Of a stretch of 62,726 bases of DNA, positions 9,679 through 36,507 are shown piece by piece; position 1 is the first letter of the stretch, and each line of letters starts with the position of its first letter. The notes beneath the pieces are model-generated. The model ran no database searches and had not been told where the DNA came from. It saw only the letters and a list, made by a program, of their open reading frames with translations. Both the position numbers and the translations under genes were made by a program. Source of the DNA: Thermoproteota archaeon (GTDB lineage Archaea > Korarchaeota > Korarchaeia > Korarchaeales > Korarchaeaceae); NCBI GenBank assembly GCA_027491435.1, contig JAOZFG010000034.1:1-62726 (forward strand), written 5' to 3'.

Positions 9679-10215
9679 ATGTCGCTCGTGTGGAAGTTCC
9701 CCGGAGGTTATAGAAGCTTAGACGTGGGCGAAGCTGGGGTGATCATCTCAGGCTCTGGAAAGGTCATGCTCGTCAGTGAGACCTCCTCCATAAAGTGGAG
9801 CGTCGAGGGCGACTTTCACCTGGCCAGGGTTTGGGAAGGTTGTGTCATGGCAGCTAGAGGGAAAGAGGTCTTGTGCTTGGCCGTGGAGGACGGCTCAGAG
9901 ATATGGAGGAAGGAGTTAGAGGGGAAGGTGAGCTCAATCGAGTTAGGGGAAAGGGCTTACGTTGGCACGGAGTCTGGCAAGGTTTACGCGTTCAACAAGG
10001 CCGGCAAGGTGTTGTGGGAGTACGAGGCTGGGAGTAAAGTTAAGGAGATAAGGGTTAGGGGGAAGGTTTACGTGCTAACCGATGAAGGGCTTCTCTGCCT
10101 CAGCGAGGAGCCGCCAAAGCCCTTCATGAGCTTTCAACCTCCTGAGCAGGAGAGCCCAGAGGAGCTCTCTGGGGAGGGTGAGTGGATCCCGGGAATGGAC
10201 GGTATCTACGGATGA
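9679..10215 (+). CDS. Small PQQ-like beta-propeller protein
   Basis: A 178-residue soluble protein made of about four PQQ-type propeller blades: repeated units such as LAVEDGSEIWRKEL and AFNKAGKVLWEYEAG, each ending with a Trp-containing strand. This is too few blades for a closed propeller, so it may dimerise or be a partial propeller. There is no signal peptide. The last 92 bp (including a Pro/Glu-rich tail of about 30 residues) overlap the 3' end of the convergent membrane-protein gene. Function unknown. Confidence 0.65.
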   Translation: MSLVWKFPGGYRSLDVGEAGVIISGSGKVMLVSETSSIKWSVEGDFHLARVWEGCVMAARGKEVLCLAVEDGSEIWRKELEGKVSSIELGERAYVGTESGKVYAFNKAGKVLWEYEAGSKVKEIRVRGKVYVLTDEGLLCLSEEPPKPFMSFQPPEQESPEELSGEGEWIPGMDGIYG

Positions 10216-11452
10216 AGGTCTCCAGCAATGAGAAGTAGCCGGTTGCCGTCCCCAGGGCGAGTATGATGAGGCCCGCCTCTAGGATGGGAATCCACTGGTT
10301 GTTGTAGGGGTTTGGGGAATACTTGCCGGGGCCGCTGGCTAGGGCATAGAGATTGGCTCCCAAGGAGGCCACAAACATGCCCGCTATGGAGAGCCACCCA
10401 CCTAGCCTTCTGGCTTCAAACCAAGCCAGGGCCGTGACTAGAACAGCCACACCCCAGAGGCCGAGCAGTATGTGCCAATGTCCCACGTTATAGGCCAGCT
10501 CTGCCCAGTCCCAGGCCTCGTCCCTGAAGGGAGGGTTGAAGATCAGGGGCTTCCTAAGGCTCATCGCCACTAGGGCTCCAGGCACAGCCACTGAGGCCCA
10601 AATTATCAAGTTCATGGCCAGGAACTCCCATCGACTCCTGCTGAAGTTGAGAGAGGCCAGAGTGGTGGCTGCGATCAGGAGCAAGGCCGCTGGCGTGATG
10701 ATCAGGTGGGCCACTTTGCCTACAGGCCACACCAAGAAGCTGGCCACGGCGGTGACAAGTTGACCGATGCCTACCAGGTAAAGGGCTCTCTTTCCCCGGT
10801 ACCCCATAACCTTGGCCGCTACTAAGAATGCCAGGGTTAGGGCTAGCGATATCATCGCATGTTCGTGAGCTGTTAAGGCCCTCCAGAAGGCGTTTTCCTC
10901 GACTAGGTCTGGGTTAAACCTGGCAGCCCTGAGAGCTTCCACGAACTCCTGCCTGTGCCACATGAAGCTGGATCCAAGCCAACCGCCTATCACGCCCCCA
11001 ATCAGTAAAAGAAGGGTTGTCAGAGCTATATTCCAATCCACCAAGTCCTTAGGCCTGAACTCCGTGAGGAAGGTTAGCCCCGACGTGAAGAGCGTTGCCA
11101 GGCCCAGTATGAAGAGACCGTGCCACTCAAAGCCTCCCAGGTAGCTGTAGCCCATTCCACCGGCTGCCGTGAGGATAGCTCCCAGGGTAAGGGACTTAGC
11201 CTGCCTCTCAGCTACGGGCAGGGCGGTCATGGCTAGGAGGACTGCGAAGATCGAGTGATAAACGAAGGTCACCCTGGCCAAGAACTCGGGCGGGGCGTCA
11301 ACTTCAGCAGCCCCTAACTCGGGGTTAAACCTCCTCTTTACAGGCTCCTTTATCCCTAAAAATGACCTGACACCAGCCATGGGAGGTGAAAGGAGCACCA
11401 TGTAGGAGAGCATTAAGACCAGGATCGTGGACAGCAGCAGGTAAGCTTTCAT
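10124..11452 (-). CDS. 12-helix membrane protein with heme-copper-oxidase-like His pattern
   Basis: A polytopic protein with about 12 transmembrane helices. Histidines lie where heme-copper oxidase subunit I has them: helix 2 (FVYHSIFA), helix 6 (TAHEHAMISLA) and an H-x-H in helix 10 (VGHWHILLG), with a long loop between helices 1 and 2 as in NorB-type enzymes. The paired CuB histidines expected in helix 7 are absent. I read it as a distant or degenerate member of that superfamily, possibly heme-binding; this is tentative. Start: a minus-strand TATA box (11478-11489) predicts transcription from about 11455, so the ATG at 11452 (MKAYLLL) is preferred over upstream ATGs. The 3' end overlaps the propeller gene. 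Confidence 0.5.
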   Translation of the reverse strand: MKAYLLLSTILVLMLSYMVLLSPPMAGVRSFLGIKEPVKRRFNPELGAAEVDAPPEFLARVTFVYHSIFAVLLAMTALPVAERQAKSLTLGAILTAAGGMGYSYLGGFEWHGLFILGLATLFTSGLTFLTEFRPKDLVDWNIALTTLLLLIGGVIGGWLGSSFMWHRQEFVEALRAARFNPDLVEENAFWRALTAHEHAMISLALTLAFLVAAKVMGYRGKRALYLVGIGQLVTAVASFLVWPVGKVAHLIITPAALLLIAATTLASLNFSRSRWEFLAMNLIIWASVAVPGALVAMSLRKPLIFNPPFRDEAWDWAELAYNVGHWHILLGLWGVAVLVTALAWFEARRLGGWLSIAGMFVASLGANLYALASGPGKYSPNPYNNQWIPILEAGLIILALGTATGYFSLLETFIRRYRPFPGSTHPPQRAPLGSPAQEVESS

Positions 11453-33910: not shown

Positions 33911-34072
33911 ATGGTGAGGCTAGGGAGCAAGGGGTTACTCAGGATACCCATGTACCTGTTGAAGGAGCTCAACCTCAAGGAGGGGTCGGTCCTCCACCTG
34001 GAAGTTGAGGATGGCAAGATAGTCCTCAGGCCCAGGATAGCCAGGGCCAACTGCACTGGTATGGTGGGCTAG
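33911..34072 (+). CDS. AbrB/SpoVT-type DNA-binding protein, antitoxin-like
   Basis: A 53-residue swapped-hairpin protein: VRLGSKGLLRIPMYLLKEL, then LKEGSVLHLEVEDGKIVLRP. Such proteins act as transcription regulators or VapB/PhdB antitoxins. The ATG at 33911 is chosen because GGGGGGTGA (33894-33902) lies 8 bases upstream and TATA (TTTAAATAT, 33852-33860) predicts a start after the earlier ATG at 33866. No toxin gene follows in the same direction; its stop overlaps the ancestral stop of the opposite-strand ATPase pseudogene. Confidence 0.7.
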   Translation: MVRLGSKGLLRIPMYLLKELNLKEGSVLHLEVEDGKIVLRPRIARANCTGMVG

Positions 34073-35371
34073 GCCCTGGCTTCCCCTCCCGTCAACCACT
34101 TCCAGATGGGAACTACTTTTATCTTGCACCTCTCCAGCAGAGTCTGCTCCTCATCCCAGGTGACTACCGTTGCTTCCTTAATCCTGAGCTCCGGCTGTTA
34201 GGAGGGAAATAAACGCCTTGAGAAGTTTTTGTTGCTTCCTTAATCCTGAGCTCCCTACATGCTTCTAACACTTTCTTTAGGTGGACGTGCTCTAGCTTAA
34301 GGGTAACTTCCACCAACTCAACGGGCTTGCCTGCACGTCGGACCACGAAGTCCACCTCACGGCCAGATTTAGTGACGTAGTATGAAATCTCCTCCCCCGG
34401 TCCCCTAGACCTCCTCTTCAGTTCAAGATAGACCGAGTTCTCCACTCTCCTGCCCAGATCCATGACCGAGCTGAAGACGTTAGATATGGCCACATCCACA
34501 AGGTAGACTTTCTTTGGGGAGATTCTCCTTATCCTCTCTGATGCGGAGCTCCTATACACGGTGAATATTAGGAAGGCTTCCCTCATATACTCCACGTAGT
34601 TTATCAAGGTCTTGGTATCTACACTAACCCCCTGGGCTTTTAACAACCTCCTCAGAGAGTTCCAGGTCACCAGATTGGAATAGTTGGAGAGTACGAAGTA
34701 GACACGTCCCTAAACTCGCTTAAATCCCTTATACCGTGCCTTTCTATCACGTCCCTGTAAAAGATAGTCTCAAGCAGTGAGATCACCTTCTCTCTGGACC
34801 TGAAGAGCCAGACCTCAGGAAATCCTCCCCACTTCAAGTAGTCGTTGAGGAGAGACCTTATCCTCCCCCTCTCCCTGAAGGTCAAGCCCTTAGAGCTTGC
34901 CACCTCTCTAAAGGAGAGGGGGAGGAGCAACTTTGAGCTGTAGCGTCCCCTAAGCTGGGTAGGTATCTCGGATGAATGAAGGGCTGAGGATGAGCCGGAA
35001 ACGTAAAGATAGAAATCTTTGACGTCGTGAAGCCAACGAAGCTTTCTACCCCAGTCCGGCCACTCCTGAACCTCATCCAGGAAGAGGTGAACCCTCCCTT
35101 CAGGATACTCAGCTCTAACCATCTCAGCAAACTCCCTAGCCTCGACTTTTCTGACTAGTGGTTCATCAAAAGGTATATAGAGAGCCTGTCCTCCCTTATC
35201 CAAGATGGATTGAGCTAATTTCAGCATGATGAAGGTCTTCCCAACTCTTCTAGGTCCTATGACAGCTATTATGTCCGGGAACGATTGAGGAAGGGAGAAA
35301 TCTCTGGGAACCTCCTGGACGTACTTTAGGGAGCCAAGGTACTCAAGGGTGAGCTCCTTTAGGAAACCCAT
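34069..35371 (-). pseudogene. AAA_14/DUF4143-type ATPase, broken twice
   Basis: The N-terminal part has Walker A (GPRRVGKTF), Walker B (VHLFLDEVQEW) and the sensor GSSSALHSSE of AAA_14 ATPases; the C-terminal part has the DUF4143 nuclease-like pattern (REVDFVVRR, then VELVEVTLK). A frameshift at about 34701-34709 separates the halves; the next frame restores VYFVLSNYSNLVTWNS. A second lesion, a 62 bp insertion at 34193-34254, breaks the tail: without it the frame reads EATVVTWDEEQTLLERC and stops at 34069-34071. The original promoter TATA is at 35391-35398, giving a leaderless ATG at 35371. Related proteins are common in archaea, with unclear function. Confidence 0.8.
34169..34254. repeat. 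24 bp perfect direct repeat flanking a 38 bp insert inside the ATPase pseudogene
   Basis: Copies at 34169-34192 and 34231-34254 are identical over exactly 24 bases and differ on both outer sides. The unique 38 bp between them (34193-34230) is not part of the ancestral reading frame. Deleting one copy plus the insert restores the gene, so this is a target duplication made at insertion. The dimensions equal those of a CRISPR repeat-spacer-repeat unit. Confidence 0.9.
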
Positions 35372-35390
35372 AGACTTATACTCCACAGAT

Positions 35391-35704: not shown

Positions 35705-36487
35705 TTAGCTCCCCATTATCCTGCGATAATCCCCTTCCACAAGCCCTCCTACCAAGTCTAGGTAGACTTGGGTGGTGTTCAAGTTTGAGTGGCCCAGTAT
35801 GGCCTGTAAGGCCCTTATGTTACCTCCCCTCAGAAGGTAGAGTATGGCGAAGCTGTGCCTGACCTTGTGGGGCGAGGAGTTGAGTGCCTGCTTGACCCAC
35901 CTCCTAATTGTTCTATCAGACCTGGGGAATACCCTTTCACCCCCGCTCACCGCCTTAAGCTCCCTCAAAACGCTGGCAGTATAGTCGGTGAAGTAAACGA
36001 CCCTGTCCTTCTCACCCTTCCCCCTGACCAGGGCTTTCCTGGCCTCCAAGTCGATCCGATCCCAGGTCAGGGAGACGAGCTCGCTGACCCTGACCCCTGT
36101 ATCAGCTAGGAAGAGCAAGGCAGCCTTCCTGATAAGGGGCAAGTCCTTAACAGCTTCCCTCAGGGACTGAACTGACTCTAAGAGCTCCCTGCTAACCCTG
36201 GGCTTTGGAGGAGGAGCCCTCATGCTCTTAGCTAGTCTTCTAACCTCCTGAAGGAGGTCTTGTCTGCCAGCGACTTCAAAGAGGCGGACTAACCTCCGGA
36301 GGTAGGTCCTCAGGGTGATGGGCTTCACCCTCTCCTGCATCAAAGCTACCCAGGCCCTCAAGTCAAGTGGGGTCAGCTGGTCCAGGGGCTTAAAGCTCAG
36401 GAGGGACCTGAACAGGCCCTCGTACTTTTTCCTGGATAGGGGCGAGAGCCCGGCGAGGGCCGCCTTTATCAGCACGTCCTCTTCCAT
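35705..36487 (-). CDS. xerA: XerA-type tyrosine recombinase
   Basis: A 260-residue tyrosine recombinase, the usual size of archaeal XerA, which resolves chromosome dimers at dif. The N-terminal SAM-like DNA-binding domain covers about residues 5-90. Catalytic residues are R133 (ADTGVRVSEL), K157 (GKGEKDR), H207 and R210 (PHKVRHSF), H233 (ILGHSN) and the nucleophile Y242 (TTQVYLD). The ATG at 36487 is preferred to a TTG at 36490 because a shared TATA element is centred 27 bp upstream. No integrase-associated att duplications are seen, so a housekeeping role is more likely than a mobile element. Confidence 0.85.
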   Translation of the reverse strand: MEEDVLIKAALAGLSPLSRKKYEGLFRSLLSFKPLDQLTPLDLRAWVALMQERVKPITLRTYLRRLVRLFEVAGRQDLLQEVRRLAKSMRAPPPKPRVSRELLESVQSLREAVKDLPLIRKAALLFLADTGVRVSELVSLTWDRIDLEARKALVRGKGEKDRVVYFTDYTASVLRELKAVSGGERVFPRSDRTIRRWVKQALNSSPHKVRHSFAILYLLRGGNIRALQAILGHSNLNTTQVYLDLVGGLVEGDYRRIMGS

Positions 36488-36507
36488 CAAACTTTTTGGA
36501 AGCCGCC

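What the first reader, a model, noticed from the sequence alone, without database searches (positions are those of the whole stretch)
34169..34254. Possible scar of an off-target CRISPR spacer integration inside a protein gene
A perfect 24 bp direct repeat (34169-34192, 34231-34254) flanks a unique 38 bp insert (34193-34230) within an AAA_14/DUF4143 ATPase gene. Deleting one repeat plus the insert (62 bp) restores an open C-terminus ending at 34069-34071, so the 24 bp was duplicated on insertion. Ordinary insertion sequences and casposons duplicate shorter sites and leave longer inserts. Cas1-Cas2 integration duplicates a whole repeat-length target, and many thermophilic archaeal CRISPRs have 24-25 bp repeats and spacers of 35-42 bp. 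Seen: the repeat, insert and frame repair. Known: off-target spacer integration has been described. Inferred: that this is such an event.
Basis: partly seen in the sequence, partly recalled or inferred. Interest (0 to 1): 0.85.

Follow-up and report, generated by a model that had tools for sequence, protein, structure and literature searches.

The report
CRISPR spacer inserted in wrong place
In the genome of an archaeon related to Korarchaeum, a 38-base piece of unknown DNA sits inside an ordinary protein gene between two perfect copies of the gene's own 24 bases, exactly the dimensions of this organism's CRISPR memory units, which is best explained as a natural mis-insertion by its CRISPR recording enzymes.

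Summary
A perfect 24-bp direct repeat (34169-34192, 34231-34254) flanks a 38-bp insert (34193-34230) near the 3' end of an AAA_14/DUF4143 gene. In all four aligned homologues the site is empty, and the duplicated 24 bp is ordinary coding DNA, so this is a 62-bp insertion with a 24-bp target-site duplication. The insert has no second copy in the genome and no match beyond chance in 60 relatives or public collections.

The window lies in the genus of Candidatus Korarchaeum. The same assembly holds two type I-A adaptation modules (csa1-cas1-cas2, one with cas4) and CRISPR arrays whose repeats are 24 bp and spacers 35-40 bp (mean 38), so the scar has the dimensions of one repeat-spacer unit. Both attacked strands begin with G, as type I-A Cas1-Cas2 prefers. 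In about 600 kb of this genome no other non-array repeat has this form.

Off-target spacer integration by Cas1-Cas2 is the best explanation (about 0.87). Not shown: the source of the insert; four bona fide spacers also found no match, so that silence means little. Off-target integration is known from E. coli and, from memory, a few natural cases. This is a clean new member of a known kind.

The parts
34169..34192 (.). first copy of the 24-bp direct repeat (target-site duplication); ancestral coding sequence of the AAA_14/DUF4143 gene
   Evidence: homologous 24 bp in four relatives
34193..34230 (.). 38-bp insert, spacer-sized, unique in the genome
   Evidence: no match beyond chance
34231..34254 (.). 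second copy of the 24-bp direct repeat
34164..34670 (-). C-terminal ORF of the interrupted gene (DUF4143, PF13635); ends at a premature stop caused by the frame shift of the 62-bp insertion
34667..35386 (-). N-terminal ORF of the same gene (AAA_14, PF13173), separated from the C-terminal ORF by a 1-bp frameshift near 34702
34069..34168 (-). displaced original C-terminal codons (VVTWDEEQ...WKWLTGGEARA*), back in frame when the flanks are joined

Best explanation
This is the scar of an off-target (non-canonical) spacer integration. A type I-A Cas1-Cas2 complex of this Korarchaeum-genus archaeon, loaded with a 38-bp prespacer, attacked the two strands of the AAA_14/DUF4143 gene at points 24 bp apart, as it would at the two ends of the first CRISPR repeat. 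Each 3' end of the prespacer was joined to one strand, and fill-in and ligation of the two 24-nt single-stranded gaps copied the 24-bp target on both sides of the insert. Shown: the duplication, the empty ancestral site, the matching array dimensions, and the presence of the adaptation genes. Inferred: that Cas1-Cas2 was the agent, and that the 38 bp came from a mobile element.
For: (1) 62-bp insertion with a 24-bp perfect target duplication, and an empty gap-free site in G008, G006, G001 and G022. (2) The genome's own arrays (contigs C4 and C15) have 24-bp repeats (23 invariant bases plus one that varies in the C4 array) and 35-40 bp spacers; the pooled mean of nine spacers, two of them from a second small array, is 38.1. 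(3) Two adaptation modules: csa1-cas1-cas2-cas4 next to the C4 array, and csa1-cas1-cas2 with cas3, cas5a and cas6 on C43. (4) The only structure of this form outside arrays in about 600 kb sampled of this genome; the other spaced repeats of 15 bp or more outside arrays and leader DNA have offsets that are multiples of 3, as in repeats within proteins. (5) Both attacked strands start with G at +1 (7.2% of window positions do), matching the C/G preference at +1 measured for S. solfataricus Cas1-Cas2 (PMC5815122) and the G preference at off-target sites in S. thermophilus (PMC6895254). One of the two sites also has the preferred C at -2. (6) Purified type I-A Cas1-Cas2 integrates at many non-CRISPR sites without host factors (PMC5815122), so the activity exists.
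Against: No source for the 38 bp was found, so its spacer-like origin is unproven. The target resembles the leader-repeat junction only weakly: 12 of 30 positions in the better orientation, reached by 4-5% of window positions. It is one event in a fragmented assembly (43 contigs, 2.54% contamination), without read-level proof. The arrays and cas genes lie on other contigs of the same bin.
Confidence: 0.87

Rival explanations
1. Repair of a staggered double-strand break: a break with 24-nt overhangs was filled in and joined with a 38-bp filler.
For: It would also give a duplication flanking foreign or filler DNA. The gene already carries a second lesion, so it may tolerate damage.
Against: It does not predict 24 and 38, which are the array dimensions. 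The insert is not templated by the chromosome, and no similar filler scars of other sizes appear in about 600 kb.
Confidence: 0.07
2. Remnant of a transposon, casposon or other mobile element that excised or decayed to 38 bp, leaving its target-site duplication.
For: A target-site duplication is present.
Against: Casposons duplicate 14-15 bp (PMC6977970). 24 bp is long for insertion sequences (general knowledge). No inverted repeat within the insert was reported, and there are no copies in the genome or relatives.
Confidence: 0.02
3. attL/attR repeats of a tyrosine-recombinase element that later lost its interior; a tyrosine recombinase gene lies 0.3 kb beyond this gene (35705-36490).
For: Recombinase gene nearby; att cores can be about 24 bp (general knowledge).
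Against: Only 38 bp lie between the repeats, the recombinase is outside them, and the 24-bp core has no other copy in the genome.
Confidence: 0.02
4. Assembly or sequencing artefact (chimeric contig, adapter or primer).
For: The genome is a 43-contig assembly with 2.54% estimated contamination, and a second frameshift lies in the same gene.
Against: A core 20-mer of the insert has a single, partial match (27/38) in 257 billion bases of GTDB genomes, so it is not a common adapter or vector. An artefact would not be expected to produce a perfect target duplication of array length.
Confidence: 0.02

Closest known systems
Off-target / non-canonical spacer integration by Cas1-Cas2 (Nivala, Shipman and Church 2018, Nat Microbiol 3:310; cited in PMC11788318 and PMC9456107; the paper itself is not held)
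   Same: A spacer-sized fragment inserted outside any array with duplication of a repeat-length target. PMC11788318 states that overexpressed Cas1-Cas2 gives integrations into non-array regions. Putative natural cases in Yersinia pestis and Sulfolobus islandicus are from memory.
   Different: Here in a Korarchaeum-genus archaeon with type I-A modules, inside a protein-coding gene, with homologues proving the empty ancestral site.
Canonical type I-A CRISPR adaptation (Sulfolobales, csa1-cas1-cas2-cas4)
   Same: Repeat length about 24-25, spacer length about 35-41, G/C at +1.
   Different: No leader, no CRISPR repeat sequence, a single unit only, inside a gene.
Casposon integration by casposase (Cas1 homologue)
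   Same: Cas1-type strand transfer with target duplication.
   Different: 14-15 bp duplications and gene-carrying elements with terminal inverted repeats (PMC6977970).
Ectopic spacer acquisition within arrays (S. thermophilus, S. mutans)
   Same: Integration away from the leader end.
   Different: That occurs inside CRISPR arrays (PMC8047081); this is outside any array.

Membership tests
Off-target Cas1-Cas2 spacer integration | Insertion outside a CRISPR array, with proof of an empty ancestral site | tested here: met
   four homologues lack exactly the 62 bp
Off-target Cas1-Cas2 spacer integration | Target duplication equals the host's repeat length | tested here: met
   24 bp against 24-bp repeats on C4 and C15
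Off-target Cas1-Cas2 spacer integration | Insert length within the host's spacer range | tested here: met
   38 bp against 35-40 bp
Off-target Cas1-Cas2 spacer integration | Adaptation genes in the same genome | tested here: met
   two csa1-cas1-cas2 modules
Off-target Cas1-Cas2 spacer integration | Site matches the intrinsic Cas1 preference (+1 G/C, -2 C; leader-repeat-like) | tested here: inconclusive
   +1 G on both strands; -2 C at one site; overall junction similarity at the 4-5% level
Off-target Cas1-Cas2 spacer integration | Insert derives from a mobile element next to a PAM | tested here: inconclusive
   no match, but genuine spacers gave none either
Casposon | 14-15 bp duplication, terminal inverted repeats, casposase gene | tested here: not met
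   24-bp duplication, 38-bp insert without a gene (for the definition)
Functional CRISPR array | Conserved repeat, several units, leader | tested here: not met
   one unit; the repeat is gene sequence with no similar copy elsewhere

The most novel reading that the evidence does not exclude
The scar is one of several products of unusually loose adaptation in this lineage, where off-target integrations seed new CRISPR arrays. The three-copy array on contig C15 (575-722), whose 24-bp repeat is found in no other genome searched, would be an older such founder that went on to gain a second spacer.
Probability: 0.08. Interest if true: 0.75.

Novelty: new member of a known kind. Interest (0 to 1): 0.52.

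Why it matters
Cas1-Cas2 fidelity in nature is known mostly from overexpression and test-tube work. A clean chromosomal scar with an ancestral empty site and matching array dimensions suggests that archaeal type I-A machinery also mis-integrates in the wild, as an insertional mutagen and a possible seed of new arrays. The signature (a repeat-length perfect duplication around a spacer-length insert, checked against the genome's own arrays and against relatives) can be searched for across genomes to measure how often this happens.

Tried and rejected
The insert was searched in phage records (best hit E = 0.1, 30 of 38 bp at 87%, Staphylococcus phages: chance), plasmids (none), IMG/VR with three sub-patterns (only chance 18-mers, 21-22 of 38 bp alike), GTDB genomes (one chance 20-mer in a Synergistaceae MAG, 27/38) and 60 related genomes with up to 3 mismatches (only itself). 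Resemblance of the target to the CRISPR repeat was tested and is weak. A leader shared between the main C15 array and the C15 mini-array was sought and not convincingly found. Rfam found nothing in the window. PMC5832444, the key precedent, is not held.

Full report
What is there. The window contains one perfect 24-bp direct repeat, GTTGCTTCCTTAATCCTGAGCTCC, at 34169-34192 and 34231-34254, with 38 bp between the copies. No other place in the window matches it within 3 mismatches, and none is expected. In 40 Markov shuffles of the window the longest direct repeat within 300 bp was 15 bp. The repeat lies near the 3' end of a gene on the minus strand that encodes an ATPase with an AAA_14 domain (PF13173, E 8e-30) followed by DUF4143 (PF13635, E 2.5e-16).

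It is an insertion with a target-site duplication. When the two flanks are joined in a script, the minus strand reads RELRIKEATVVTWDEEQTLLERCKIKVVPIWKWLTGGEARA and stops at 34069-34071. Homologous genes in G008, G006, G001 (same genus) and G022 (same family) align through the site and lack the 62 bp. The 24 bp is ordinary coding sequence in them (for example AGAACTGAGGATTGGAGAGGCGAC in G008). So the 24 bp was duplicated when 38 bp entered. As 62 is not a multiple of 3, the insertion shifts the frame and replaces the last 32 codons by a short unrelated tail. The gene also has a separate 1-bp frameshift near 34702, which is either a real second lesion or a sequencing error.

Which organism. The genus includes G009, a single contig of 1,590,757 bp, which I recognise from memory as the genome size of Candidatus Korarchaeum cryptofilum OPF8 (lineage). 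The window's own assembly, G000, is 1.64 Mb in 43 contigs, 99.46% complete with 2.54% estimated contamination.

Array dimensions. G000 has two arrays with the repeat GAATCCCGAAAAGGGGATTGAAAG, of which 23 bases are invariant and the last base varies in the C4 array. On C4 (10202-10538) there are six copies with spacers of 39, 40, 36, 39 and 39 bp. On C15 (38-183) there are three copies with spacers of 39 and 35 bp. A second small array on C15 (575-722) has three copies of a different 24-bp repeat and spacers of 39 and 37 bp. The nine spacers average 38.1 bp. In G009 the repeat is 25 bp, and 33 and 49 of 118 spacers are 38 and 39 bp. The scar's 24 + 38 falls in the middle of these values.

Adaptation genes. 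C4 carries csa1, cas1, cas2 and cas4 immediately beside its array. C43 carries csa1, cas1, cas2, cas3 and cas5a, with a weak cas6 match. The two Cas1 proteins are 34% identical. C15 carries cas6 and cas3. I call the modules type I-A by Csa1 (TIGR01896, PF06023) and Cas5a (TIGR01874).

Control survey. In about 600 kb of G000 (the window plus stretches of C4, C5, C15, C16, C24 and C43) the only spaced perfect repeats of 20 bp or more were CRISPR arrays, the scar, and repeats whose offsets are multiples of three, as expected inside coding sequence. In 440 kb of G009 outside the main array there were a few such repeats and tandem repeats, and none of scar form. So the structure is not a common by-product of repair in this genome.

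Fit to Cas1-Cas2 chemistry. Cas1-Cas2 joins prespacer 3' ends to the 5' end of the repeat on each strand. S. solfataricus type I-A enzymes prefer C or G at +1 and C at -2 and, without host factors, integrate all around a plasmid (PMC5815122). S. thermophilus off-target sites favour G (PMC6895254). At the scar both strands have G at +1 (7.2% of window positions do), and one site has C at -2; three of the four preferences are met (15% of positions do as well). Similarity to the genome's own leader-repeat junctions is 12 of 30 in the better orientation, reached by 4-5% of positions. This is consistent but weak.

Source of the insert. No second copy in G000, none within 3 mismatches in 60 relatives, nothing beyond chance in phages, plasmids, IMG/VR or GTDB genomes. 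Four genuine spacers from the same genome also had no exact 20-21-mer match in IMG/VR, so the reference collections do not seem to cover this organism's mobile elements, and the failure carries little weight. The near-absence of its core 20-mer from 257 Gb of genomes argues against an adapter or vector.

Alternatives. A staggered break with 24-nt overhangs plus 38-bp filler would look the same but gives no reason for array dimensions. Casposons duplicate 14-15 bp (PMC6977970), and no copies of the insert exist. A tyrosine recombinase gene is close (35705-36490), but an att-flanked element of 38 bp without its integrase is implausible and the core has no other copy. An artefact cannot be fully excluded without reads.

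Place among known things. Off-target spacer integration in vivo was described by Nivala et al. 2018. The paper is not held here; PMC11788318 and PMC9456107 cite it for integrations outside arrays. From memory, the work was in E. coli and also lists putative natural cases in Yersinia pestis and Sulfolobus islandicus. The present case is therefore a new member of a known kind. Its strength is the documented empty site and the dimensional match. I found no earlier report from this archaeal lineage, but most subscription papers could not be searched.

Noticed in passing
G000 contig C15, L125:575-722: Three copies of a different 24-bp repeat (forward GAAGTCATTTAGAAATAATGAAAT) with spacers of 39 and 37 bp, about 390 bp from the leader end of the main C15 array; the repeat is found in none of 24 other genomes searched within 3 mismatches. 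Its leader-repeat junction (TCG|GAA) matches that of the main array.
   Followed up: partly
G000 contig C15, L125:752-850: Two copies of GCTTACTTGATAAAATC(n3)CTTTCTAAA 68 bp apart in the DNA next to the mini-array, possibly leader elements or degenerate repeats.
   Followed up: no
window 34700-34710: A 1-bp frameshift splits the AAA_14/DUF4143 gene independently of the 62-bp insertion; the gene may be a pseudogene.
   Followed up: partly
L042:10832-11338 (G009): In the large G009 array a block of four consecutive spacers occurs twice in tandem, an internal array duplication.
   Followed up: no
G000 contig C4, array 10202-10538: The last base of the oriented repeat varies in pairs along the array (G, G, T, T, A, A; listed from the cas end), as if the terminal repeat base drifted or is set at integration.
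   Followed up: no
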